From an uncultured Candidatus Actinomarina sp. (GTDB lineage: Bacteria; Actinomycetota; Acidimicrobiia; Actinomarinales; Actinomarinaceae), in NCBI GenBank assembly GCA_902576605.1, contig CACGVI010000005.1:1-55087 (forward strand): a stretch of 55,087 nucleotides of DNA. Direction: 5' to 3'. Below, one piece after another: positions 29,099 through 52,632 of this stretch. The notes beneath the pieces are model-generated. The model had not been told where the DNA came from, made no database searches, and saw only the letters and a list, made by a program, of their open reading frames with translations. A program made the position numbers and the translations under genes. Each line of letters opens with the position of its first letter. Position 1 is the first letter of the stretch.

Positions 29099-29772
29099 AA
29101 ACATTTATTGCAGCACCATTTGGAAATTATATTAAAACATCAAGTACAATCTCCGTTACTGGAAGCTGGACTATAGAAAAACGTAAAGGCCGTATAAAGC
29201 AAATTGTAAAAACACTGAGATACACCAAGAGAGGGTGGGTTAACAAAATAGGCTTAAGAAATCCTGGATTTGAATATGGTATAAAAAATCATAAAGAAAA
29301 TGAGGTATTTTCAGTAGCTGGAATTGAGGAAGATGATTGGAAAATTTTTGCTGAATTGATTCCCAGTGATACAAATCTAGAAGTAAATATGTCATGCCCA
29401 AATATTGAAAACCACTTTACTTCAGGAATTGAAAACTTCAGTTATGAGTCTCGCCAGTGGTACATTGGAAAGATTTCTCCATTAACAACTTTTGATGAGC
29501 TAGAAAAATATATAAATGAATTTAATTTTAAACAAATCCATGCATGTAATACTTTGCCCATTGAAAAAGGTGGTTTAAGCGGAAAAGAACTTATCCCATA
29601 TACTTCTAAATTTATTGAGCATATAAAGCAGTACTATCCTCATATTGAGATTATTGCTGGTGGAGGAATATCTGAAAAAAAAGATATTGAGCATTATATT
29701 GAGTTAGGCGCAGATCACATAAGTCTTGGAACTGTATGTTTCAATCCAGTAAAATTAGGAAGGTTATTATGA
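29095..29772 (+). CDS. pyrD: compact dihydroorotate dehydrogenase-like protein
   Basis: WVNKIGLRNPG, LEVNMSCPN, ACNTLPIEKGGLSGKEL, EIIAGGGIS, ADHISLGTVCF; located between pyrF and pyrE-like ORF; only 225 aa. Confidence 0.75.
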   Translation: MKTFIAAPFGNYIKTSSTISVTGSWTIEKRKGRIKQIVKTLRYTKRGWVNKIGLRNPGFEYGIKNHKENEVFSVAGIEEDDWKIFAELIPSDTNLEVNMSCPNIENHFTSGIENFSYESRQWYIGKISPLTTFDELEKYINEFNFKQIHACNTLPIEKGGLSGKELIPYTSKFIEHIKQYYPHIEIIAGGGISEKKDIEHYIELGADHISLGTVCFNPVKLGRLL

Positions 29773-30125
29773 ATTTATTTATCAGAGAAGATTTTATTTC
29801 ACACGCAGGATTGCCATTGACTTGGAAGGTCGAATGTGATGCGTTAGGTGAGGGTGATTACGAAGCGCTTGCAAAAATAGTGAGCGAAAAAATTAAATTT
29901 AAAGATGTTGTTGGTATACCTCGTGGAGGTATTCCTTTTGAAAATGCCCTTAAACAGTACGCATCTAATGACGAAAATGATCCTTTGTTAATTTGTGATG
30001 ATGTATATACAACTGGTACATCAATGAGAGAGGTTTATCAAGAGGGTGCAATTGGTATTGTGGTTTTTGCAAGGAATGAGATTACAGATGATTGGATTAA
30101 GGCAATTTGGCAAATGTCAATTTAG
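29769..30125 (+). CDS. pyrE: compact orotate-type phosphoribosyltransferase
   Basis: VVGIPRGGIPFENAL and PRPP motif LLICDDVYTTGTSM; start MNLFIREDF overlaps the previous stop (ATGA). Confidence 0.7.
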   Translation: MNLFIREDFISHAGLPLTWKVECDALGEGDYEALAKIVSEKIKFKDVVGIPRGGIPFENALKQYASNDENDPLLICDDVYTTGTSMREVYQEGAIGIVVFARNEITDDWIKAIWQMSI

Positions 30126-30556
30126 TCTTCAAATTTACTAATTCTTCTTAAATATCTCTCATCTTGAATTAATTTAGCATCTAAGAAACTTTCAACAATA
30201 TCTAGAACATTTTCTTCATTTATATTGTTTGCGCCTAAACATAAAACATTTACATCATTGTGTTCTACACTTTGGGTTGCAGTCTCTTTATCAACTACAT
30301 TTGCAGCTCTTATTCCTTTTATTTTATTAGCAGAAATAGACATGCCTACACCGCTTCCACAAATCAATAATCCTCTTGAGGATTCATTATTGACTACAAA
30401 ATCACAAACTTCTTTTGCAAAGTCTGGAAAATCGCAACTCTCTTCACTGTTGGTTCCAAAATCATTTAAGTTAATTTCTTTTTTAAGGTTGTGAACAATA
30501 TAATTTTTTAGATTGTATCCAGCATGGTCAGATGCAATTGCTAAATTTTGAATCAT
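30122..30556 (-). CDS. rpiB: ribose-5-phosphate isomerase B
   Basis: IASDHAGYNLK, DYPDFA-like DFPDFAKEV, LLICGSGVGMSISANKIKGIRAA. Confidence 0.92.
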   Translation of the reverse strand: MIQNLAIASDHAGYNLKNYIVHNLKKEINLNDFGTNSEESCDFPDFAKEVCDFVVNNESSRGLLICGSGVGMSISANKIKGIRAANVVDKETATQSVEHNDVNVLCLGANNINEENVLDIVESFLDAKLIQDERYLRRISKFED

Positions 30557-36078: not shown

Positions 36079-36918
36079 ATGAAGAAAAATTCATTTTTTA
36101 AATCTGGTTCCGGAGCTCGAAAAGCATTTGTTTCTAACTTCCAAGATAAAACAGAATTAAAAGAGGTCACAGACTCAAACAATAAGTCAAAAATAATAGA
36201 TAAAATTTTTCACAAAAGCTCTGAAAATATGGAGGAACTTGAAAATAATTCTGTTAGCCTCACAGTCACATCCCCGCCTTACAACATTGGTAAAGACAGC
36301 GACCTAGATTTAACTGATGATGAGTACTGGTCAATGATGGAAAATATTTTTAAAGAAACATATAGAGTCACTGAATCCGGGGGGAGACTTGTTGTAAATG
36401 TTGCTAATTTAGGTAGGAAACCATATATTCCTTTTTCAAAATACTTCACAGAGCTTTTAATTGAGACTGGTTTTATTATGCGTGGTGAAATCATATGGCA
36501 AAAGTCCAAAGGAGCTAATGCTAATTTTGCCTGGGGTAGCTGGCTATCGGCATCCAACCCAGTTATTAGAGATATTCACGAGTATTGTTTAGTATTTTCA
36601 AAAGATTCACTTAAAAAATCTACTCAAGGTGAATCTTCTCTTGAAAAAGAAGAGTTTATGGAATCTACACTTTCTATATGGAATATAAATCCAGCAAGAG
36701 CAAAGAAAATAGGCCATCCCGCTCCATTTCCAATAGAACTTCCACAAAAATTTATAAATCTATACACATACAAAAATGATTTAATTCTTGATCCTTTCCT
36801 AGGAAGTGGAACAACAGCTATAGCAGCAAAATTATTGGAGCGAAATTTTGTTGGTTATGAAATTGAAGAAGAGTACATCGAAATAGCTAAGAATAGATTA
36901 AAAAAAGAAGTTAATTAA
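36079..36918 (+). CDS. site-specific DNA methyltransferase (beta-class N4/N6), orphan
   Basis: Motif IV TSPPYNIGKD before motif I LILDPFLGSGTTAIAAKLLERNFVGYEI (beta-class order). Confidence 0.92.
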   Translation: MKKNSFFKSGSGARKAFVSNFQDKTELKEVTDSNNKSKIIDKIFHKSSENMEELENNSVSLTVTSPPYNIGKDSDLDLTDDEYWSMMENIFKETYRVTESGGRLVVNVANLGRKPYIPFSKYFTELLIETGFIMRGEIIWQKSKGANANFAWGSWLSASNPVIRDIHEYCLVFSKDSLKKSTQGESSLEKEEFMESTLSIWNINPARAKKIGHPAPFPIELPQKFINLYTYKNDLILDPFLGSGTTAIAAKLLERNFVGYEIEEEYIEIAKNRLKKEVN

Positions 36919-41994: not shown

Positions 41995-42618
41995 TTGGCT
42001 GAAAAAGCTAACTTTTCAAACATATATAAGTTTTACGACGTAATTAATTCTTTCATAACACTTGGGTTTGATAAATCTTGGAGAAACAAAGCCAGTAACC
42101 ATATAACTGGTACAAGGGTTTTAGATCTTGGAAGTGGAACTGGTGCAGCTTTTCAACAGCTTCAAAACCTCGAAGTAACGGCTATTGACCCTGATGAAAA
42201 GATGCTTCAACTTAATAAATTCAAAAACAAAATTATTGGTGGTGCTGAAAACCTTCCGTTTCCAGATAACTCTTTCGACAGTGTTTATTGTGCTTTTGTA
42301 TGGAGAAATGTAAACGATCCAACAAAAGGCATTGAAGAGGTACATAGAGTTTTACGACCAGGTGGAAAATTTATTCTTCTTGATATGACCAGGCCTAAAA
42401 ATAACTTTCTTAAATTACTACATAAGGTTGGTACATTCAAAGTAACTCTATTGATTGGATTGTTAACCTTTAACTTAAGAGAGTACAGATTTCTTCACAA
42501 CTCACTAGATAAATATCCTCAACCTGAAGAATATTTTCAAGCCCACCCTTTTCAATATTGCAATATAGAAAGAATGGGCTTGTTTAAATTTGTTTACCTA
42601 ACGGTGCTGACGAAATAA
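41995..42618 (+). CDS. menG: demethylmenaquinone methyltransferase-like (MenG/UbiE)
   Basis: VLDLGSGTGAAFQQL, DNSFDSVYCAFVWRNVNDPTKGIEEVHRVLRPGGKFILLDMTRP; TTG start. Confidence 0.88.
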   Translation: MAEKANFSNIYKFYDVINSFITLGFDKSWRNKASNHITGTRVLDLGSGTGAAFQQLQNLEVTAIDPDEKMLQLNKFKNKIIGGAENLPFPDNSFDSVYCAFVWRNVNDPTKGIEEVHRVLRPGGKFILLDMTRPKNNFLKLLHKVGTFKVTLLIGLLTFNLREYRFLHNSLDKYPQPEEYFQAHPFQYCNIERMGLFKFVYLTVLTK

Positions 42619-42638
42619 GTAATGTTAGGCTAATAATT

Positions 42639-43094
42639 TTAAAATGGGGGCATATCGTCATCATCGTAATCCCTTCTATATCGCCAAGGTGGGATATTTA
42701 AATCGGTTTCTATACTTTTTAAAAAATCATTCATATTTGATTTTTTTATTTTTAATGCACTAAAGGTATTGATATTAAATTCTGGAAATTTTTCAACATT
42801 TGATAGTACAGTTTGTATTGCATCAGCATTCCCAGCTTCTACGTATAATTCAAGTTCTTTAAGTGCATCTAGTCTTAAATTCAACTGTCGAATATATAAA
42901 GAAAGTTCTTTAAGGTATATACTCGATAGAAGAGTTGAGTAAAAAACAGGATTTGTTGTCATCCAGTTGGTTACACTATTTGCTGATATATTAAGTTCAT
43001 CCAAGATATCTTCAACATCATTACCCGCTACAAATAGGTTTATAAAATGAGTTTGTTTTTCGCTTAGTTTGCCAAGCTTTTTTTTAGAATTCAT
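42639..43094 (-). CDS. putative helix-turn-helix protein (terminase-small-subunit-like HTH)
   Basis: LSEKQTHFINLFVAGNDVEDILDELNISANSVTNWM resembles an HTH; overlaps the upstream ORF by 11 bp. Confidence 0.55.
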   Translation of the reverse strand: MNSKKKLGKLSEKQTHFINLFVAGNDVEDILDELNISANSVTNWMTTNPVFYSTLLSSIYLKELSLYIRQLNLRLDALKELELYVEAGNADAIQTVLSNVEKFPEFNINTFSALKIKKSNMNDFLKSIETDLNIPPWRYRRDYDDDDMPPF

Positions 43095-43611
43095 TGAAAT
43101 CCTCCATACTCATTTCATCGGGAAGAGGTGGGGTTGTATTTAACTCTTTATACATTTCAGGTATCCAAGGCATAAGGTCTGGACATTGCGATGACACAGT
43201 AGAAACTAAATATTGATGATATTCAAATTGTTTTTTACTACTTTTTGAAATTGCATAAACACAAACATATAACCATGTAATCAGTGATACTGGAACACTT
43301 GTAGTTTGTTGTGTCGTCTTAATAAACACTCCAGGCCCCTCAAGTAGAAGATGAATTGGCATCCCATCAAAGGGGTGAATCATTACTCCATCATCTAACT
43401 TTTCAGCATTCAATTTTTTTTGTGTGTTTGTAAATAAAAAAATAAACAAAAATATTGAAACAAAATAGCTCGCAACTAAATTGCTTCTGTAAAGCCATGC
43501 AGAAGCAATTAAATATATATTTGTTATTGCTAATAAAAGCACTAAGTATATTTTTGAAAACTTATTATTTCGCATAAGCTTTGGTATTTGTGATTTAAAT
43601 TTAGACAACAT
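43084..43611 (-). CDS. membrane protein of unknown function
   Basis: N-terminal hydrophobic helices (YLVLLLAITNIYLIASAWLYRSNLVASYFVSIFLFIFLF); ATG directly abuts the stop of the HerA-like gene. Confidence 0.65.
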   Translation of the reverse strand: MLSKFKSQIPKLMRNNKFSKIYLVLLLAITNIYLIASAWLYRSNLVASYFVSIFLFIFLFTNTQKKLNAEKLDDGVMIHPFDGMPIHLLLEGPGVFIKTTQQTTSVPVSLITWLYVCVYAISKSSKKQFEYHQYLVSTVSSQCPDLMPWIPEMYKELNTTPPLPDEMSMEDFNEF

Positions 43612-45360
43612 TTAAAAATCCTCAACAGAAAATTCTATCAACATGCCTTTTCCATTTGGATCAATTGCAGACCTAAGTCCTAAAGCAAAAAATTGACAGC
43701 TAATCATTAGACCAGTTTTTTTATCTTCATCAAGTGGATCTAGTGTTTTGAGCTCTTTAAATGCTTCACTTGTTAAATTTTTTGATAATTGATTAATTAC
43801 TGACTGCTGTATTCCGTACCCTAAAAGTAGAATTTTGTTTTTAATTCTCTCAAAAATTTCACTATCAAGTTGCAGTGGATCCGGATTTACAAATGCAAAA
43901 CCTAAGCCTTTGGATCTGGCCCAATTATTCAGCAATTCTTTAATGCCTTTAATAGCGCTTTCCTGATATATATTTTCTGTTTTATTTGGAAAATACATAC
44001 CAGCCTCATCAGCAAAAAATAAAGCTTTTGTCTGTTTGAAATTAGAATCTGATAAAAGTTTCTTTTGGCGTTCAATCAATTTTGAAACTATAAGACTCAA
44101 ATGCTTTTCTTTTACCCACTCAGGGATAAAATTTTTACTTCCTGGATGGATAAAAATTATGGTATTTTTACCTGAGTTTTTTGTCTTGCTAGATTTCTTT
44201 GTCAAAAACTCGTCTATAATTTCTTCAATACTCCACTTTTTATCATTACTAGAGAAGTACTGTATTAATTTATTTAGATTATTTTGGATGGAACAGACTC
44301 TGTAGTTATCATTTAAAAGTTCTGTTACTTTTTCTTTAAATGCCTCCAGTGGTCTAGGATTCGAAACCCCAGCATATACTTGAGTAGCATATGTATCTTC
44401 TTCAAATTTTTGAAGGATAAATATTACGTCATCTCTTTGAACTTCAGAACCATTTTTTATTAATTCAGGTTTTTCTTTTAGTAAGATATCTAAGAAAACG
44501 TCAATGAATTTTGCTTTGTTTCCAATATTAAAAGTAGCTTTGTTATTAAAAGTATCATATGCTTTAGCCATTGCAACTAAATTTTCATGATTCAAATCTA
44601 AAATAATGTCATCAAAAATTGATAAATTATAAATTTCTCGATTGTTTTGATGCACTGTATCAATAAAGTTTTTACTAGAGGCAAGAGATTCACCATACAT
44701 TTGGGACTTTGGATCAATGCCTAGCAGATTGATATCAGTTCCAGAATAAATTTTCAGCAAATTCAATAGTACTGAACTCTTACCCTGACCCGTATCGGCA
44801 AATATACCAATATGCTTAGCAGAGTTATCGTGATTTGGTTTTAAAATCAGATTGTCATATCCACCTTTAATTTTTTTTGAGGGAATTCTTCCAAATTTTG
44901 AATAGTCTTCTAGGTTTAATGTAGATTCCAATTTTTCTATAAAATCTCCAGCATCAACAACTGCTTCACCTGGCAATATGGGTCTGGGTAATGCATTTAA
45001 CGACTTAACGCCATCAATTGGATCAGTCTCAATTACGTTGTATATTTTAAAATTTGCTTTGTAATATGTAGTTTCACGAATTTTTAGCTCTAACGCATAG
45101 CCATCAATATTTTCAATTTCATTCGATCTTGAACGTGTATATTCAATATATTCCTTGTTTCTATCTTCAACACCATTAATTGGCTCTAACCCTGTAACTA
45201 CACCAGCTACTAGATAGCTTGCCATAGTCTTAGGGTTTTGGATTTTAATTGCTAGCATTTCGCCTTCGCGAATAGATTCCCTGTTGTCTCCAGATACTGT
45301 TATGGGTACCTCCCATACATCTCCTCCAACATTTGTTTTAGCTATAATATTTTCTGACAT
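43612..45360 (-). CDS. HerA/FtsK-family DNA-translocase-like ATPase
   Basis: N-terminal barrel-like region, Walker A ADTGQGKSSVLLNLL, Walker B ALFFADEAGMYFP, downstream KGLGFAFVNPDPLQLDSEIFERIKNKILLLG typical of HerA. Confidence 0.82.
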   Translation of the reverse strand: MSENIIAKTNVGGDVWEVPITVSGDNRESIREGEMLAIKIQNPKTMASYLVAGVVTGLEPINGVEDRNKEYIEYTRSRSNEIENIDGYALELKIRETTYYKANFKIYNVIETDPIDGVKSLNALPRPILPGEAVVDAGDFIEKLESTLNLEDYSKFGRIPSKKIKGGYDNLILKPNHDNSAKHIGIFADTGQGKSSVLLNLLKIYSGTDINLLGIDPKSQMYGESLASSKNFIDTVHQNNREIYNLSIFDDIILDLNHENLVAMAKAYDTFNNKATFNIGNKAKFIDVFLDILLKEKPELIKNGSEVQRDDVIFILQKFEEDTYATQVYAGVSNPRPLEAFKEKVTELLNDNYRVCSIQNNLNKLIQYFSSNDKKWSIEEIIDEFLTKKSSKTKNSGKNTIIFIHPGSKNFIPEWVKEKHLSLIVSKLIERQKKLLSDSNFKQTKALFFADEAGMYFPNKTENIYQESAIKGIKELLNNWARSKGLGFAFVNPDPLQLDSEIFERIKNKILLLGYGIQQSVINQLSKNLTSEAFKELKTLDPLDEDKKTGLMISCQFFALGLRSAIDPNGKGMLIEFSVEDF

Positions 45361-45372
45361 TTTATCTCCTTT

Positions 45373-46437
45373 TCATGTCCTGACTCTAAATGGAAGATTA
45401 TGTAAAAAATCTTCCTGTTCCATTGCTATTTTTTCATCCAAGCTATTGAGCGAGAACCTACGCTTCATTTCACTTTTAGCAAAATCTTCTGCAAAAAATG
45501 TAGCATAAGGTTCTTTTTGAATACCCAACATTTCTATGGATAAAGCTTTAAATATTGATTGTTTTGATTTTTGAAATAACTTGTTGTTTAAATATTCAAC
45601 TTTTAAAGGACTGTCGTTTGTGTCAAACTTAAGGATTTCACCCTTATATATATTTTTAGAGAAATTTAACAACCTTTCATATTGATCTATGTAATCAGCT
45701 GCATTGCTATCAAAAGCTCTTAATGAAGAGAGCCTCGTAAGCATTTGGTCTTGATGTATTTTCTCAATAAAGGATTCATTAGAATGCAATACAACACCAA
45801 AAACTCTCTTTGGAATCAATTGATTATAGTCTTTTTTAAATTCATCTAGAATAATTTTCAAATCATATGAAAAAAAATCCTTAACAACATAACAAACTGT
45901 ATTTGTCATTAAATTATCAACTAAAGTTTTAAACTCAGACGCATCGAATCGATCACAAAGTTCTGGAAAAATTTCAACAAGGTTTTTAATATCTTTAAGA
46001 ATTGCCCAGAATGGTCCATCTACAATTATCAAATCATCGTCTTGAGTATTTTTGCAAGTTTCATTAATAGCTTGGAATTCAAGTAGCCTCATTTGCAAGA
46101 GATCTTTTTCTAAATTTGTAGACCAGATTGTGTCAGATTTTGCAAAATCGTACTGATGCCGTCCTTCAAGAATTACACCTGTTGTTGAAGCACATGCTAT
46201 AACTTTGTATTTGTATTCTCCACTTACATCATTTATTTCAGATAGTGTGCCATCAATTCCAAAGGTTCTTGGTGATGGCACAACTATCTTTTCCCCTTGC
46301 CCTATAGGGGTAAGGGTCCCAGGGTTATTTCTTAAAATATATTCTCTTAATCGCATCCTATCTTTAGCTAAATTTGTTCTTAACTTATAGTCGTTTATTG
46401 ATAGAGAGCTAATTGAGTTCTCTGTAGTTTTACTCAT
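45373..46437 (-). CDS. NurA-like nuclease
   Basis: TFGIDGTLSEI and later LIIVDGPFWAI (two DG motifs of NurA), conserved E in the intervening helix, C-terminal KEPYATFFAEDFAKSEMK; immediately upstream of the HerA-like gene; start taken at MSKTTENS. Confidence 0.65.
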   Translation of the reverse strand: MSKTTENSISSLSINDYKLRTNLAKDRMRLREYILRNNPGTLTPIGQGEKIVVPSPRTFGIDGTLSEINDVSGEYKYKVIACASTTGVILEGRHQYDFAKSDTIWSTNLEKDLLQMRLLEFQAINETCKNTQDDDLIIVDGPFWAILKDIKNLVEIFPELCDRFDASEFKTLVDNLMTNTVCYVVKDFFSYDLKIILDEFKKDYNQLIPKRVFGVVLHSNESFIEKIHQDQMLTRLSSLRAFDSNAADYIDQYERLLNFSKNIYKGEILKFDTNDSPLKVEYLNNKLFQKSKQSIFKALSIEMLGIQKEPYATFFAEDFAKSEMKRRFSLNSLDEKIAMEQEDFLHNLPFRVRT

Positions 46438-46582
46438 AAGACTGTTCCAAAATATTTTCAAATCCCTGCTCAGTTATTAGATTTTCTAATTCAGTAAGCC
46501 GAAGGTCAAGAGCGGTTGTTTCACTCTGAAGGTAATCTAAGATTTTCACAATCATTGATATCTTTTTAAACAACTTATACAT
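46430..46582 (-). CDS. 50-aa small protein MYKLFKKISMIVKILDYLQSETTALDLRLTELENLITEQGFENILEQSYE
   Basis: Read from sequence; below the ORF-track cutoff; coiled-coil-like; overlaps the start of the NurA-like gene by 8 bp and the end of the upstream ORF. Confidence 0.5.
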   Translation of the reverse strand: MYKLFKKISMIVKILDYLQSETTALDLRLTELENLITEQGFENILEQSYE

Positions 46583-46967
46583 TTGTAGGTCCTTCTTCAG
46601 TGGAACTTTCTTCTAAAACATACTTAAAAATTTGTGCTTCATTCATCATTGGAGCAACAGCAACTAAGAAGTTCCCAGTGTCATCTTCCACAACAAAATT
46701 TTGTTTTGTTTTTGGGTCAACTTCTTTTATAAATATTTGATCCGGATCTAATGAATGAAATTCATCCTTTGATGCAATTTCTCCAAATAAAACACAGCCG
46801 TCATCATCTGTAAAAACCAATTGATCTCCTTCTGCAAAGTGACCTTTTAGTTGACCAGTTTTATACCTTCTTAATACTTCCGTATTGATTATTTGGCACA
46901 ATTGATACAATTTTGAGTTTGTTGTATTAGATATGCTTTCTTTAATTGTTGTTAAAACTTCTTCCAT
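46575..46967 (-). CDS. protein of unknown function
   Basis: 130-aa ORF with SD (AAGGAGAATAAAAATG) inside the stop region of the upstream gene; acidic. Confidence 0.6.
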   Translation of the reverse strand: MEEVLTTIKESISNTTNSKLYQLCQIINTEVLRRYKTGQLKGHFAEGDQLVFTDDDGCVLFGEIASKDEFHSLDPDQIFIKEVDPKTKQNFVVEDDTGNFLVAVAPMMNEAQIFKYVLEESSTEEGPTNV

Positions 46968-46969
46968 TT

Positions 46970-47158
46970 TTATTCTCCTTGAGTTCTATTGATATGTCCA
47001 CGTATCCTTGGGAAGGAAACTGGTGTGTGTAAAAAGCAATATTTTTTTTTGTTGTAAATCGATAGTTGCGTAAGGCAGTATTGCTCTGCACAAAATCTAC
47101 CGCTAACATATTGCTTCGACTTGCGTCTGTTACTCGTTCCGAGTCTTTTTCCATTCAT
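46970..47158 (-). CDS. small zinc-ribbon-like protein
   Basis: 62 aa; RFCAEQYCLTQLSIYNKKKYCFLH (C-x4-C-x12-C-x2-H) resembling the CxxCGTxLSxYNxxxxCxxH short zinc-binding motif; SD GGAGAA upstream; preferred over the overlapping 46942..47154 ORF. Confidence 0.55.
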   Translation of the reverse strand: MNGKRLGTSNRRKSKQYVSGRFCAEQYCLTQLSIYNKKKYCFLHTPVSFPRIRGHINRTQGE

Positions 47159-47199
47159 TCGAAATTCTCCTAAATTAAATAACTATTAATAACTATTTT

Positions 47200-47261
47200 T
47201 GAGCAGAGTGAGCAGAGTGAGCAGAGTGAGCAGAGTGAGCAGAGTGAGCAGAGTGAGCAGA
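47200..47261. repeat. tandem array: 7 exact copies of TGAGCAGA at 9-bp spacing (unit GAGCAGAGT)
   Basis: TGAGCAGA begins at 47200, 47209, 47218, 47227, 47236, 47245, 47254. Confidence 0.97.
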
Positions 47262-47270
47262 AAACATACC

Positions 47271-47311
47271 TTGGTAGTGCAAACCGTCTGCTCATTGGTA
47301 AGCACTACCAA
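47271..47311. promoter_or_regulatory. 10-bp perfect inverted repeat TTGGTAGTGC/GCACTACCAA; 21-nt loop contains an inverted copy of the array core (TCTGCTCA)
   Basis: Arms 47271-47280 and 47302-47311; TCTGCTCA at 47287-47294; alternative hairpin TTGGTA-AGCAC-TACCAA at 47295-47311. Confidence 0.85.
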
Positions 47312-47387
47312 AAGTAATAATCTATTTATAACAGATATAAAAATTAATGCGCGCTTATTTTATAAGAATTTGATAATTTTTATAAAT

Positions 47388-47416
47388 TTAGCAAAATCGT
47401 CGGTACAATATATAAT
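47388..47416 (+). promoter_or_regulatory. sigma70-like promoter TTAGCA-17-TATAAT for the 414-aa ORF
   Basis: TATAAT at 47411-47416, ATG at 47428, implying a very short or absent leader. Confidence 0.5.
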
Positions 47417-47427
47417 AGTTAGTAACA

Positions 47428-48672
47428 ATGACAAAAATTAAAACTTTAGAAGAAATTAAATATCTGTTGGTTAGTGATTTTGGAATCAAAAATATTTCTG
47501 GCAGACCTATATTGACTACCAATTCAGAAGATATATCAGGCATTCTAGGAAGTGCCCTCCCCTCTATTTATTATCGTGTCGAAATTGAGTACGAAAATTA
47601 TAAAAATAATGCATATGTTATTTTTTCTTTAGCTTTGGATCCAATTAAAAATACTGAACTATATTCATATAATGAAAATACAATTAAAATTCTCAATTAT
47701 TCACAAAATCCTGGAAGATCACCTTCATCTCCTGAATTCAAAATTGAGTTAAGAGAAAATAATATTGATCAAAGTTTTGAAGTAGCCTACAGACAGTTTC
47801 ATAAAAATTTAGAAAATGATGAATTTGAAAATATTTTTTTAGATAAAGAATTAAAAACTCTGAAATTAGCTTTTTCTGATCTGGAAACAATACTGAATAA
47901 AACTAAAAAAGAAAGAAATAATCTAGTTCAACAAGTAAATGTAGAAAATGAGCTAAAGACATTTTCATTAGATCCTCAAATGTTTAATGACTTTAACATT
48001 TTAGATTTGCAAAAAACATGTACCCTTTTTCTTGAAGCTAGGTATGGTGCACTACATAAATTAAAAGAAGATAATTCAGATATTCAGACACTAGAAGTTA
48101 TTGATTGGCAACAACTTTATAATACTTACACTACAAAAAATATTGCTCTTTCCTATCTAAACAAAATAAACGATGCTGAATCTTTCAAAATAAATGATGA
48201 ATTTTTAATATCTATTTATTTCACAATAATCAAAGACTTGAATGGCATAGAGCAGAAAATATTTACTAAGGCATTAAAAAATTTAAATATTGAGCCAAGC
48301 ATTTTAGAAAGTAGCCTATATAAAGCAATTGATAGAATGAAAAAAATTCAAAATGAAGAATATCAAAAACGACAAAAGTTGAAATCGTCAATTGGCGAAG
48401 CTCCAAGGAAAAGAGAGTATAAAATTGAAATTAATTCTGCGACAAATCCAAAATTAAACAAAACAAGGGACGCCCTTTTATATATTGAAGTTTTACTGCG
48501 GTTAATATCCAAAAACAATACTATGAATCAAGATCTTCTTTTGCAAAGATCTTTAGACATGTATCTTAGAACTAAATTTGCAAGGTTTAAACAAGATGGG
48601 TATATAAATAATTCAAAAAATGGTCCTCGGTACACTCTTGAAAGCAAAGGTCGAAATCTTCTAACTAAATAA
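47428..48672 (+). CDS. protein of unknown function, possible C-terminal winged-helix
   Basis: 414-aa ORF with good coding character; coiled middle region; C-terminal LLLQRSLDMYLRTKFARFKQDGYINNSKNGPRYTLESKGRNLL resembles a winged helix. Confidence 0.7.
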   Translation: MTKIKTLEEIKYLLVSDFGIKNISGRPILTTNSEDISGILGSALPSIYYRVEIEYENYKNNAYVIFSLALDPIKNTELYSYNENTIKILNYSQNPGRSPSSPEFKIELRENNIDQSFEVAYRQFHKNLENDEFENIFLDKELKTLKLAFSDLETILNKTKKERNNLVQQVNVENELKTFSLDPQMFNDFNILDLQKTCTLFLEARYGALHKLKEDNSDIQTLEVIDWQQLYNTYTTKNIALSYLNKINDAESFKINDEFLISIYFTIIKDLNGIEQKIFTKALKNLNIEPSILESSLYKAIDRMKKIQNEEYQKRQKLKSSIGEAPRKREYKIEINSATNPKLNKTRDALLYIEVLLRLISKNNTMNQDLLLQRSLDMYLRTKFARFKQDGYINNSKNGPRYTLESKGRNLLTK

Positions 48673-48886
48673 AATCTAATATCTCAAGATACATATTAAG
48701 ACTAGGTTTTATTTTAATACTTTTAAGGCTGAGAGATTTAACTTTATTTTCATTCGTAGAAATAATTTCTAAAATTACTTCTTCATTTCCAGGATAATTA
48801 TTAAATACGTTTCTTAATTTATACAAACTTTCTTTATTTAATTTATACTCTTCAAACCTTATGATAAAAGCATTGGGATCTGTCAT
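48665..48886 (-). CDS. standalone segment resembling the extreme C-terminus of DNA polymerase III alpha (DnaE)
   Basis: LYKLRNVFNNYPGNEEVILEI..LKSIKIKPSLNMYLEILDFI resembles the LKEVLxxHPGxTEVxLxL..xRVxPSPxLxxxLKxLLG tail of actinobacterial DnaE1. Confidence 0.45.
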   Translation of the reverse strand: MTDPNAFIIRFEEYKLNKESLYKLRNVFNNYPGNEEVILEIISTNENKVKSLSLKSIKIKPSLNMYLEILDFI

Positions 48887-48890
48887 GGTT

Positions 48891-49133
48891 CTACCAAAGA
48901 GGTCCGAAAAGACGAGAATATAAAATATATAGTGAATTTTTTTCTACTTCAACCATTTGTTTCCAAAACTTTATATTTTCATTAGAGTAAATTGCACTAG
49001 CTTCATCCTCTGACATACCAGAATCAATATTTCTTATATAATTTTCCTGTGGTTCAGTAATACCAACTTCTAATAAGTCTTTAAGGGCTTTTTGGATAAT
49101 ATTTAATTCTTGTTGATTTAACTCATATTGCAT
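48891..49133 (-). CDS. small protein of unknown function
   Basis: 80-aa ORF ending 4 nt before the start of the next minus-strand ORF. Confidence 0.5.
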   Translation of the reverse strand: MQYELNQQELNIIQKALKDLLEVGITEPQENYIRNIDSGMSEDEASAIYSNENIKFWKQMVEVEKNSLYILYSRLFGPLW

Positions 49134-49166
49134 ATATGCAATATTAAAAAAAGACTATGACAAAAT

Positions 49167-50353: not shown

Positions 50354-51013
50354 TTAGACTTTTTCTCCTGACTTGATTCTTGCCATTCCAAGTACCAATA
50401 CACCAAGACCAACTTTATTAATTATGTCAGCAATTGTGTAAAGAACTTCTCTAATAGCATCGAAGTCGCCTGCTACTGGAGCTAAATAACCTAATGGATA
50501 GATTATCCAACCAACAAGTATGAGATTTTTGATTTTCTCAAACTGATCTGCTTCTGCAGCTTTAAGTCCTGCACCTTCTGCTTGAAGATTTCTCATCAAG
50601 TATGCATATGCAAGCATAGCTACAACAAATCCAATCCAGTAATTGTCACTGCCTGCAGATGATGTTTCACCGTAATAACCAGCTCCGATCATCACTGTTG
50701 CAGCGAGTCCCCAGTTTCTAACTTTTTCGTTATACTCTGCACCTGAAGATGTCACAGCAAGCACCTCTACAAACATTAATGGTACTGTTAGGATCCAGTC
50801 GACATATCTTAAGCCTGTATCATAATCCCCACCAGCCCATGAGCCAGTCATTTTGTTATAGTGATACCAAGCTATTCCTGTCACAAGAGCGGAGATATAC
50901 ACTCCTCTTCTGTGTTTTGGATCTACTTCTCTTGATGATGCTAGTAAAAATACTGTTCCAGCGAGCATACCCACTGTTGCCACCATAAAGAGTCTATAAG
51001 TAAGTTCAGCCAT
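50354..51013 (-). CDS. light-driven proton-pump rhodopsin (proteorhodopsin/actinobacterial-type, DTE motif)
   Basis: Helix C RYVDWILTVPLMFVEV (D..T......E), helix G LYTIADIINKVGLG with retinal-binding Lys, seven hydrophobic helices in 219 aa. Confidence 0.95.
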   Translation of the reverse strand: MAELTYRLFMVATVGMLAGTVFLLASSREVDPKHRRGVYISALVTGIAWYHYNKMTGSWAGGDYDTGLRYVDWILTVPLMFVEVLAVTSSGAEYNEKVRNWGLAATVMIGAGYYGETSSAGSDNYWIGFVVAMLAYAYLMRNLQAEGAGLKAAEADQFEKIKNLILVGWIIYPLGYLAPVAGDFDAIREVLYTIADIINKVGLGVLVLGMARIKSGEKV

Positions 51014-51043
51014 TTTAGCTTACTCCTTTTGTTTAATTTTTAC

Positions 51044-51063
51044 ATTGTGAAACTAATCACAAT
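51044..51063. promoter_or_regulatory. CRP/GlxR-type palindrome ATTGTGA-AACTAA-TCACAAT upstream of rhodopsin
   Basis: Perfect TGTGA-N6-TCACA with flanking AT pair, 31-50 bp upstream of the rhodopsin ATG. Confidence 0.75.
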
Positions 51064-51129
51064 ATTATGTTATTCATTTTGTGCATTTGTGAATGTATTT
51101 TTAAATTTTTTTTTAAAATCGGTGTAACT

Positions 51130-52632
51130 TTATTTCAAAATACTAGTAATGACGCCCAACGACTCATTACCCCATTGCTCAAGATAGGGTTTTAAGTTAA
51201 ACTTTCTGGCTGTTGAGTCAGAAGTCATATATCTAATTTTCCCAAATATACTACGCTCTGGCCCCCATGCTCTGTCATACCTTCCAAGAATCCAAAAAAC
51301 TCCTGAATACGAATTTGGATCTCTGCCGTCTAATGAATATCTATCATTAAGAGTAATCATATAAGAAAGTGCAATTTGCGGATTTGGTGTCCATTCAAGA
51401 ATTTTTTTTCCCCACAACATTCTCAAATAGTTTTGTATAACTCCTTGAGTTCTTAATTGATTTTGGGCAGCATTCCAAATTTCGTCATGAGTTTGAGAGT
51501 AAGTTAATTCGTCTAAAGAGTAAATGTATTCTCTTTCGTCTAAAGAATGTTCTTGTAAAGTTTTTATAGCCCATTCCGGTAAGCTAGAGTACTGATTGTA
51601 ATTAGCACGCCTAACACACGTATGGTAACCAAGCTCTCTCCATGTAATTAATTCATCCATAAAGCTTTCAAAATTATCAGAACTTCCCCACCAACCTTCT
51701 CTTCGTCCAACCATTTTTGGATTTATAGATTCTGGAGACCAAGACTCTAGTTCAGATATTTTATCAAATACTTCATGAGTCGATATCTGACCGGAGTGAA
51801 AATATGGAGATAGCTGGCTACTTGCTTCTTTTGAAGGGTCACTTCTGTATTGTGCATAATCTTGATATCCAACCTCAATAAATTTATTAAGTTGTTTTGC
51901 AGCATTCGAATACCCACCTCTGATAGAACTAATCTCAACTGTTTTGTCTATATTTAAATTTTCTAGAAAGTCATCTATGTTTTCACTTTCAAAATTATAA
52001 GGAACCCATTTATTTTGTATATCTTTTATAAGTGAAACATCAAATTTTTTGTTTAAAAGATCAAGAGGGTGTTCAAGAGGTGTTTCAATAATAAAATCTT
52101 CTAAATTTTTATGAAGATACCTTCTAAAATCATGTGCTCTTACATACTCTTTTTCTGAAAGCCTTATTGGAACAATTCCGTTCGAATCTACAAGCTCATA
52201 TCTTGTATTAATTTCACCAGATGCTTTTGCTGTCATTTGAGGAACGAAATAAGTTGGATAATCATCCGTTACTACTACTGAAGCATCTTTTGAAATCTCT
52301 GTTAACAGTCCTTCAGACTCCTTTGATGACTGTTCAACAAATGGATAGTAGTAAGCCTTAGAACTTAGAACTGTTTCATATACTTCTTTCATACCTTCAA
52401 GTGTGAACTTATGAAATCGTATACTTGACATCGGATAGTCAAGTATTAATGGTTCCAAAATAAGCAGAGGTTGAGAAAGTTGATTCGCCCACTCAACTGC
52501 TCGTTGCAACGCAAAGTTATACCCAACTCTCTTAAAGGAAATCATCCAGTAAACAACATATTTTGAATCTGGAATTGATTCGGGATTGATGTCTTTTAGT
52601 GTAGTAACACGTGTAAGTGGAACTTGTACCAT
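51130..52632 (-). CDS. phr: class II deoxyribodipyrimidine (CPD) photolyase
   Basis: QNYLRMLWGKKILEWTPNPQIALSYMITLNDRYSLDGRDPNSYSGVFWILGRYDRAWGPERSIFGKIRYM, class II-type signature. Confidence 0.93.
   Translation of the reverse strand: MVQVPLTRVTTLKDINPESIPDSKYVVYWMISFKRVGYNFALQRAVEWANQLSQPLLILEPLILDYPMSSIRFHKFTLEGMKEVYETVLSSKAYYYPFVEQSSKESEGLLTEISKDASVVVTDDYPTYFVPQMTAKASGEINTRYELVDSNGIVPIRLSEKEYVRAHDFRRYLHKNLEDFIIETPLEHPLDLLNKKFDVSLIKDIQNKWVPYNFESENIDDFLENLNIDKTVEISSIRGGYSNAAKQLNKFIEVGYQDYAQYRSDPSKEASSQLSPYFHSGQISTHEVFDKISELESWSPESINPKMVGRREGWWGSSDNFESFMDELITWRELGYHTCVRRANYNQYSSLPEWAIKTLQEHSLDEREYIYSLDELTYSQTHDEIWNAAQNQLRTQGVIQNYLRMLWGKKILEWTPNPQIALSYMITLNDRYSLDGRDPNSYSGVFWILGRYDRAWGPERSIFGKIRYMTSDSTARKFNLKPYLEQWGNESLGVITSILK

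What the first reader, a model, noticed from the sequence alone, without database searches (positions are those of the whole stretch)
42639..47158. Seven-gene HerA-NurA operon with small accessory proteins: candidate undescribed defence or DNA-processing system
Seen in sequence: seven minus-strand ORFs packed with overlaps or near-zero gaps (Zn-ribbon-like 62 aa, 130 aa, 50 aa, NurA-like, HerA/FtsK-like ATPase, membrane protein, HTH protein). Established knowledge: HerA and NurA form a translocase-nuclease complex for end resection in archaea, and bacterial HerA-containing pairs such as SIR2-HerA and HerA-DUF4297 are antiphage systems. Inference: a HerA-NurA pair co-transcribed with a membrane protein and regulatory-looking small proteins, placed among core metabolic genes, looks like a mobile defence or DNA-maintenance module with unusual composition.
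Basis: partly seen in the sequence, partly recalled or inferred. Interest (0 to 1): 0.85.

Follow-up and report, generated by a model that had tools for sequence, protein, structure and literature searches.

The report
Mobile HerA-NurA operon, probable phage defence
A small ocean bacterium carries a mobile block of genes for a ring-shaped DNA-pumping motor coupled to a DNA-cutting enzyme, in a seven-gene arrangement that matches no catalogued defence system and probably destroys invading viral DNA, although no function has been tested.

Summary
The seven packed minus-strand ORFs are real and form a unit. The same ordered operon (Zn finger, two small proteins, NurA, HerA, two-helix membrane protein, HTH protein) was found in three of 42 genomes of the genus, at two chromosomal sites. 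In the window it belongs to a clean ~6.55 kb insertion (42619-49166) between menG and tlpA, which abut tail-to-tail in 19 of 20 relatives examined. HerA is secure. NurA alone falls below Pfam's cut-off, but a profile of the three island proteins finds the protein directly upstream of HerA on a haloarchaeal plasmid, which passes Pfam's NurA cut-off; both motif aspartates are kept. Between copies, frame genes are 75-88% identical (p414 59%) while NurA is ~24%, the membrane protein 31-35%, and the two small core proteins are not detectably similar: a hypervariable cassette in a conserved frame. Defence is inferred from HerA-nuclease precedents, relatives in a DruA/UvrD locus and near methyltransferases, patchy mobility and fast core divergence. 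DNA transfer (ICEth1-like) and repair remain live rivals. No PADLOC system matches; the mad8 hit is generic. Verdict: new variant of a known kind (HerA-nuclease modules), worth an experiment.

The parts
42619..49166 (.). Whole insertion between menG and tlpA
   Evidence: menG and tlpA abut tail-to-tail in 19 of 20 relatives; second copy at the same site in G034, third at another site in G060
46970..47158 (-). 62-aa CxxxxC...CxxH Zn-finger-like protein, first gene of the operon
   Evidence: 77-84% identical in G034, 42% in G060; 52% to a gene upstream of dnaK in the same genome
46575..46967 (-). 130-aa core protein of unknown function
   Evidence: positional equivalents of 109 and 137 aa in G034 and G060; no sequence similarity above shuffles
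46430..46582 (-). 50-aa small core protein
   Evidence: positional equivalents of 58 and 120 aa; similarity not significant
45373..46437 (-). NurA-family nuclease, 354 aa; motif Asp at residues 62 and 140
   Evidence: island profile finds haloarchaeal NurA upstream of HerA; motif Asp invariant in 10 sequences
43612..45360 (-). HerA-family translocase ATPase, 582 aa; Walker A GxxxxGKS ending near residue 195, Walker B FFADEA near 448-453
   Evidence: hhalign 97.6% to L092 HerA over 409 columns; haloarchaeal HerA E 1.9e-12; PDB HerA entries weakly
43084..43611 (-). Membrane protein, two predicted helices near the N-terminus plus soluble domain
   Evidence: hydropathy; homologues in G060 and G034, shuffle z 27-33
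42639..43094 (-). 151-aa protein with N-terminal HTH-like segment (LuxR/terminase-small-subunit-like) and acidic C-terminus
   Evidence: 75% identical in G034, 45% in G060; weak HTH hits
47200..47261 (.). Seven 9-bp tandem units TGAGCAGAG, about 40 bp upstream of the operon's first start codon
   Evidence: G034 has TTAGCAGAA units changed in concert, G060 has none
47271..47311 (.). 10-bp inverted repeat (47271-47280 / 47302-47311) with an inverted copy of the 9-bp unit in its loop
   Evidence: sequence and folds; z about -1.8, so weak
47428..48672 (+). Divergent 414-aa gene, frame of the island, function unknown
   Evidence: 59% identical over the part held in G034; G060 has an unrelated 504-aa gene at this place
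48665..48886 (-). 73-aa frame gene
   Evidence: 88% identical in G034; not seen in G060
48891..49133 (-). 80-aa frame gene
   Evidence: 84% in G034, 44% in G060; also in G010 beside a C5 methyltransferase
42608..42616 (.). Left copy of a 9-bp near-repeat (TGACGAAAT), end of menG
   Evidence: may be chance
49158..49166 (.). Right copy of the 9-bp near-repeat (TGACAAAAT)
   Evidence: may be chance

Best explanation
It is a mobile HerA-NurA module that most likely protects the cell by destroying incoming DNA. Shown here: the pair is HerA plus NurA, in a conserved seven-gene operon that sits at two different convergent gene junctions and is absent from most relatives, with a fast-diverging core in a conserved frame. 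Inferred: HerA forms a hexameric dsDNA pump carrying a NurA dimer, as in archaea; the two-helix membrane protein holds the complex at the envelope where phage DNA enters; the HTH protein and the variable small core proteins choose the DNA or gate the activity; the Zn finger, the 9-bp array and the divergent gene regulate expression; the complex then pulls in and cuts linear foreign dsDNA. The core diverges quickly because phages evade or inhibit it.
For: HerA and NurA identities; conserved operon in three genomes; insertion absent in 19 of 20 relatives; core 20-35% identical against 75-88% for most frame genes; nearest chromosomal HerA-NurA pair lies between DruA and a UvrD/PD-(D/E)XK protein; a Euzebya pair lies near methyltransferase and restriction genes; the 80-aa family recurs next to a C5 methyltransferase; DUF4297-HerA is antiphage (PMC11291478) and T. 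kodakarensis HerA-NurA is proposed to be antiviral (PMC12977600).
Against: No functional data. No PADLOC system match; the mad8 hit is to a model that rings in every genome searched. Related HerAs on Rhodococcus and Dietzia plasmids sit near primase and SMC-type ATPase genes rather than defence genes. The Thermus ICEth1 NurA/HerA-like pair serves DNA transfer (PMC5365140). Only three copies are known; equivalence of the two small core proteins rests on position.
Confidence: 0.5

Rival explanations
1. DNA-transfer module like Thermus ICEth1: the membrane-bound HerA-like ATPase pumps DNA between cells, NurA prepares the substrate, and the island spreads by this route.
For: ICEth1 carries an adjacent NurA homologue and membrane-binding HerA-like ATPase (TdtA), both promoting DNA donation, next to restriction-modification genes (PMC5365140); Ced/Ted systems are thought to use HerA-NurA products (PMC9905601); the island is mobile and has a membrane protein.
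Against: No integrase, relaxase or pilin gene and no long att repeats found; the membrane protein has only two predicted helices; fast core divergence in a conserved frame is not expected of a transfer pump.
Confidence: 0.2
2. DNA repair or end-resection module, an accessory copy of the archaeal/Deinococcus HerA-NurA function.
For: HerA-NurA was first studied in end resection (background in PMC12977600); related HerA genes on actinobacterial plasmids lie near SMC-type ATPase and primase genes; the Zn-finger paralogue stands upstream of dnaK, hinting at stress control.
Against: Absent from nearly all relatives; core diverges faster than its flanks; no Mre11/Rad50 in the island.
Confidence: 0.15
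3. Remnant or part of a phage satellite or plasmid: a terminase-small-subunit-like HTH protein and a packaging-type ATPase that serve the element itself.
For: HTH protein weakly matches terminase small subunits (E 0.002-0.007); HerA belongs to the FtsK/packaging superfamily; tandem repeats in the control region.
Against: No relatives found in phage records, plasmids (window proteins) or viral contigs at the sensitivity used; no capsid, portal, integrase or replication gene recognised; HTH hits are near noise.
Confidence: 0.1

Closest known systems
Archaeal and Deinococcus HerA-NurA complex (PF01935 / PF09376)
   Same: Adjacent NurA and HerA genes, conserved motif residues
   Different: Below Pfam cut-offs as single sequences; accessory and mobile; dedicated Zn-finger, membrane, HTH and small proteins; no Mre11/Rad50
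SIR2-HerA and DUF4297-HerA antiphage systems
   Same: HerA-type ATPase paired with a nuclease or effector, accessory distribution
   Different: Nuclease is NurA, not SIR2 or DUF4297; seven or eight genes instead of two
Thermus ICEth1 (NurA homologue + TdtA)
   Same: Adjacent NurA and HerA-like ATPase in a mobile region absent from a sister strain
   Different: ICEth1 has an integrase and 47-bp att repeats (PMC5365140); the island has neither and has further conserved genes. Sequences not compared here
DruA-NurA-HerA-UvrD locus of L092 (G188) and haloarchaeal/Euzebya plasmid pairs
   Same: Closest HerA and NurA found here by profile comparison
   Different: No DruA, UvrD or restriction genes in the island; the Zn-finger/membrane/HTH set was not seen there (HTH and membrane profiles negative on L139)
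MADS (mad8)
   Same: ATPase resembles the mad8 profile (E 3e-8)
   Different: The profile matches FtsK/HerA-type proteins in every genome; no other MADS gene

Membership tests
NurA nuclease family (PF09376) | Profile match above the curated cut-off | tested here: not met
   14.9 bits against 21 for the window protein; none listed for G034 and G060
NurA nuclease family (PF09376) | Homology to accepted NurA through a profile | tested here: met
   Island profile finds the haloarchaeal protein (E 3.5e-5 among 2118 sequences) that passes the NurA cut-off at 34.1 bits
NurA nuclease family (PF09376) | Two motif aspartates (DG[S/T]) | tested here: met
   D62 and D140 invariant in ten sequences; in G034 motif I reads DAS
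NurA nuclease family (PF09376) | RNase H-like NurA fold | tested here: inconclusive
   Model pLDDT 56, pTM 0.60; highest-probability PDB match is NurA 3tal (prob 0.60, E 0.089); NurA sequences were in the alignment
NurA nuclease family (PF09376) | Nuclease activity | not testable with these tools
   needs protein
HerA translocase family | Walker A and Walker B, full-length profile match to HerA | tested here: met
   hhalign 97.6%, 409 columns; haloarchaeal HerA E 1.9e-12
HerA translocase family | DUF87 match above curated cut-off | tested here: not met
   15.2 and 17.5 bits against 23.2
HerA translocase family | Hexamer that translocates dsDNA | not testable with these tools
   needs protein
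SIR2-HerA / DUF4297-HerA defence | SIR2 or DUF4297 partner | tested here: not met
   neither domain found in island proteins
MADS defence system | Set of mad genes | tested here: not met
   only the generic mad8 profile matches
Druantia | DruA or DruE-type proteins in the island | tested here: not met
   no PADLOC match in island proteins; DruA occurs only in the L092 relative
ICEth1-type element | Adjacent NurA and HerA-like ATPase on mobile DNA | tested here: met
ICEth1-type element | Integrase and long direct att repeats | tested here: not met
   no integrase hit; only a 9-bp near-repeat at the ends
Antiphage defence system (general) | Protection against phage | not testable with these tools
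   needs phage challenge

The most novel reading that the evidence does not exclude
An undescribed multi-gene antiphage system: a membrane-tethered HerA-NurA engine whose core genes (two small proteins, NurA, HerA, membrane protein) are exchanged or diversified as one cassette between conserved flanking genes, so that strains of one genus carry different specificities.
Probability: 0.4. Interest if true: 0.78.

Novelty: new variant of a known kind. Interest (0 to 1): 0.6.

Why it matters
If the host is a 'Ca. Actinomarinales' bacterium, as its traits suggest (inference), this would be notable: that order is reported to lack identifiable CRISPR and toxin-antitoxin systems and nearly all mobile elements (PMC7771536), so how it resists phages is open. 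A mobile, fast-diverging HerA-NurA operon is a concrete, testable candidate. It also bears on whether HerA-NurA is a repair or an antiviral machine, because here it is an accessory, mobile module with dedicated partners.

Tried and rejected
Single-sequence searches found nothing: HerA in 59 relatives, NurA in 398 phylum genomes, window proteins in plasmids and phages and viral contigs. An alignment with invented filler rows (A1) was used only to steer the search patterns to the ATPase motifs; its one genome hit (L056) is a 36-residue Walker A match in an FtsK-like protein without NurA and was dropped. MADS assignment rejected, the model being generic. Single-sequence AlphaFold of NurA useless (pLDDT 32). 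The 70-aa ORF 46942-47154 rejected as an out-of-frame overlap. A G008 hit to the 414-aa protein (L109) lies in a biotin-ligase-like gene and was rejected as chance. No Rfam RNA in the window; the control region folds only slightly better than shuffles. Composition does not mark the island: dinucleotide distance 29 lies within the contig's 22-38.

Full report
Observation. Single proteins give only weak hits: DUF87/HerA at 15.2 bits (cut-off 23.2), NurA at 14.9 bits (cut-off 21), nothing for the small ones.

The block is part of an insertion. In 19 of 20 relatives whose locus was fetched, menG and tlpA lie tail to tail, about 7-110 bp apart; the twentieth (L030) is rearranged and has no island there. 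The window has about 6548 extra bp, 42619-49166, which hold the operon, a divergent 414-aa gene (47428-48672), and genes of 73 and 80 aa. A 9-bp near-repeat (TGACGAAAT / TGACAAAAT) marks the ends; the same motif stands in the empty site of L015. It may be chance. No integrase was recognised and the window has no tRNA gene. Composition does not set the island apart.

Other copies. A DNA search of 42 genomes of the genus found a second copy in G034, at the same site but broken over three contigs (L118, L119, L120). An HTH-protein profile found a third, complete copy in G060 at another site, between a phosphoribosyltransferase gene and rpiB; these two genes abut in the window (29736-30125 and 30122-30556). 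The gene order is the same in all: Zn finger, small protein, small protein, NurA, HerA, membrane protein, HTH protein. G034 and G060 add a lipoprotein-like gene that overlaps the HTH gene. A HerA profile found only the window and G060 among 396 genomes of the class; the G034 HerA is cut off by a contig end just where its Walker A should begin.

Cassette and frame. Between the window and G034 the frame genes are similar (HTH 75%, Zn finger 77-84%, 73-aa 88%, 80-aa 84%, 414-aa 59%), like the flanking core genes (menG 72%, tlpA 79%, dsbB 84%). The core is not: NurA 24%, membrane protein about 31-35%, HerA 27% between window and G060, and the two small proteins show no similarity above shuffled sequences, so their equivalence rests on position alone. 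NurA similarity is clear in the pairs with G060 (z 15.6 and 9.4) and weak between window and G034 (z 3.8). So a core cassette was replaced, or diverged much faster than its frame.

HerA. The two full-length island sequences match a HerA that lies next to NurA in a distant actinobacterial genome (L092) with 97.6% probability over 409 columns. The profile picks three HerA structures out of the PDB, weakly (E 0.007-0.21), and finds a haloarchaeal plasmid HerA at E 1.9e-12.

NurA. The haloarchaeal locus (L139, Natribaculum longum plasmid) was fetched through HerA only. The gene directly upstream is found by the three-sequence island NurA profile (E 1.7e-6 in that locus; 3.5e-5 in a 2118-sequence set that includes the ORFs of the other fetched loci), and it passes Pfam's NurA cut-off (34.1 bits). 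With it added, the NurA of L092 follows at 6e-8. In a ten-sequence alignment the Asp of both motifs is invariant and the C-terminal EPY..FA block aligns with YPYPLA..H. AlphaFold with this alignment reached only pLDDT 56 and pTM 0.60. The Foldseek match with the highest probability is NurA (3tal, 0.60); several others are Argonautes, which share the RNase H-like fold; none has E below 0.05. Because NurA sequences were in the alignment this is weak support.

What it may do. HerA-NurA of Thermococcus is two NurA on six HerA subunits, and its 2026 study argues for an antiviral rather than a resection role (PMC12977600). DUF4297-HerA protects against phage by degrading DNA (PMC11291478). Context points the same way without proving it: the L092 pair stands between DruA and a UvrD/PD-(D/E)XK protein; a Euzebya megaplasmid pair stands near methyltransferase and restriction genes; the island's 80-aa family recurs beside a C5 methyltransferase in G010. 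Against this, related HerA genes on Rhodococcus and Dietzia plasmids sit near primase and SMC-type or AAA ATPase genes, and the Thermus ICEth1 NurA/TdtA pair serves DNA transfer (PMC5365140). I put defence at 0.5, transfer at 0.2, repair at 0.15, phage-satellite or plasmid function at 0.1.

Control region. About seven 9-bp units (TGAGCAGAG) precede the operon. G034 has TTAGCAGAA units, changed in concert, and each genome has an inverted copy of its unit in a nearby hairpin loop; G060 has no array. The first gene is a paralogue of a 66-aa gene directly upstream of dnaK. Both suggest regulated expression; neither is tested.

Limits. Many genomes of the genus are incomplete, so absence counts are approximate, but the empty-site count is not affected. 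Sampling outside the class was limited: one pattern scan of genome contigs with a poor query, and phylum samples with single queries.

Noticed in passing
window 47200-47311: 9-bp tandem array plus an inverted copy of its unit in a hairpin loop; the units differ in concert from those of G034 (TGAGCAGAG v. TTAGCAGAA). Possible operator array; function unknown.
   Followed up: partly
L121 1937-2137 (G000:C1), also L122-L125: A 66-aa Zn-finger-like gene (CxxxxC...CxxH) lies directly upstream of dnaK in this genome and similar sequence recurs in many genomes of the genus; it is the paralogue of the operon's first gene. A candidate regulator of the chaperone operon.
   Followed up: partly
L138 7605-10651 (G010:C1): An 80-aa-family gene beside a 163-aa gene, a 332-aa gene of no known family and a C5 cytosine methyltransferase: possible restriction-modification locus with an unrecognised restriction enzyme.
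   Followed up: partly
L132 7255-8124 (G060:C3): 289-aa protein of the 5-hmdU DNA kinase helical-domain family (E 1e-21) next to the G060 island, inside the same interrupted gene junction.
   Followed up: no
L139 2303-3913 (Natribaculum longum plasmid CP095396): HFX_2341/DUF6293-type protein near the haloarchaeal HerA-NurA pair.
   Followed up: no
window 36079-36918: Solitary DNA methyltransferase-like protein (TSPPYNIG motif), also present in L030 next to menA.
   Followed up: no
window 50354-52632: Rhodopsin-like gene followed by a photolyase-like gene; the rhodopsin gene is conserved beside dsbB/tlpA in the relatives.
   Followed up: no
L030 (G008): The menA-menG-tlpA neighbourhood is rearranged in G008, with two ABC transporter genes between menA and tlpA.
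   Followed up: partly
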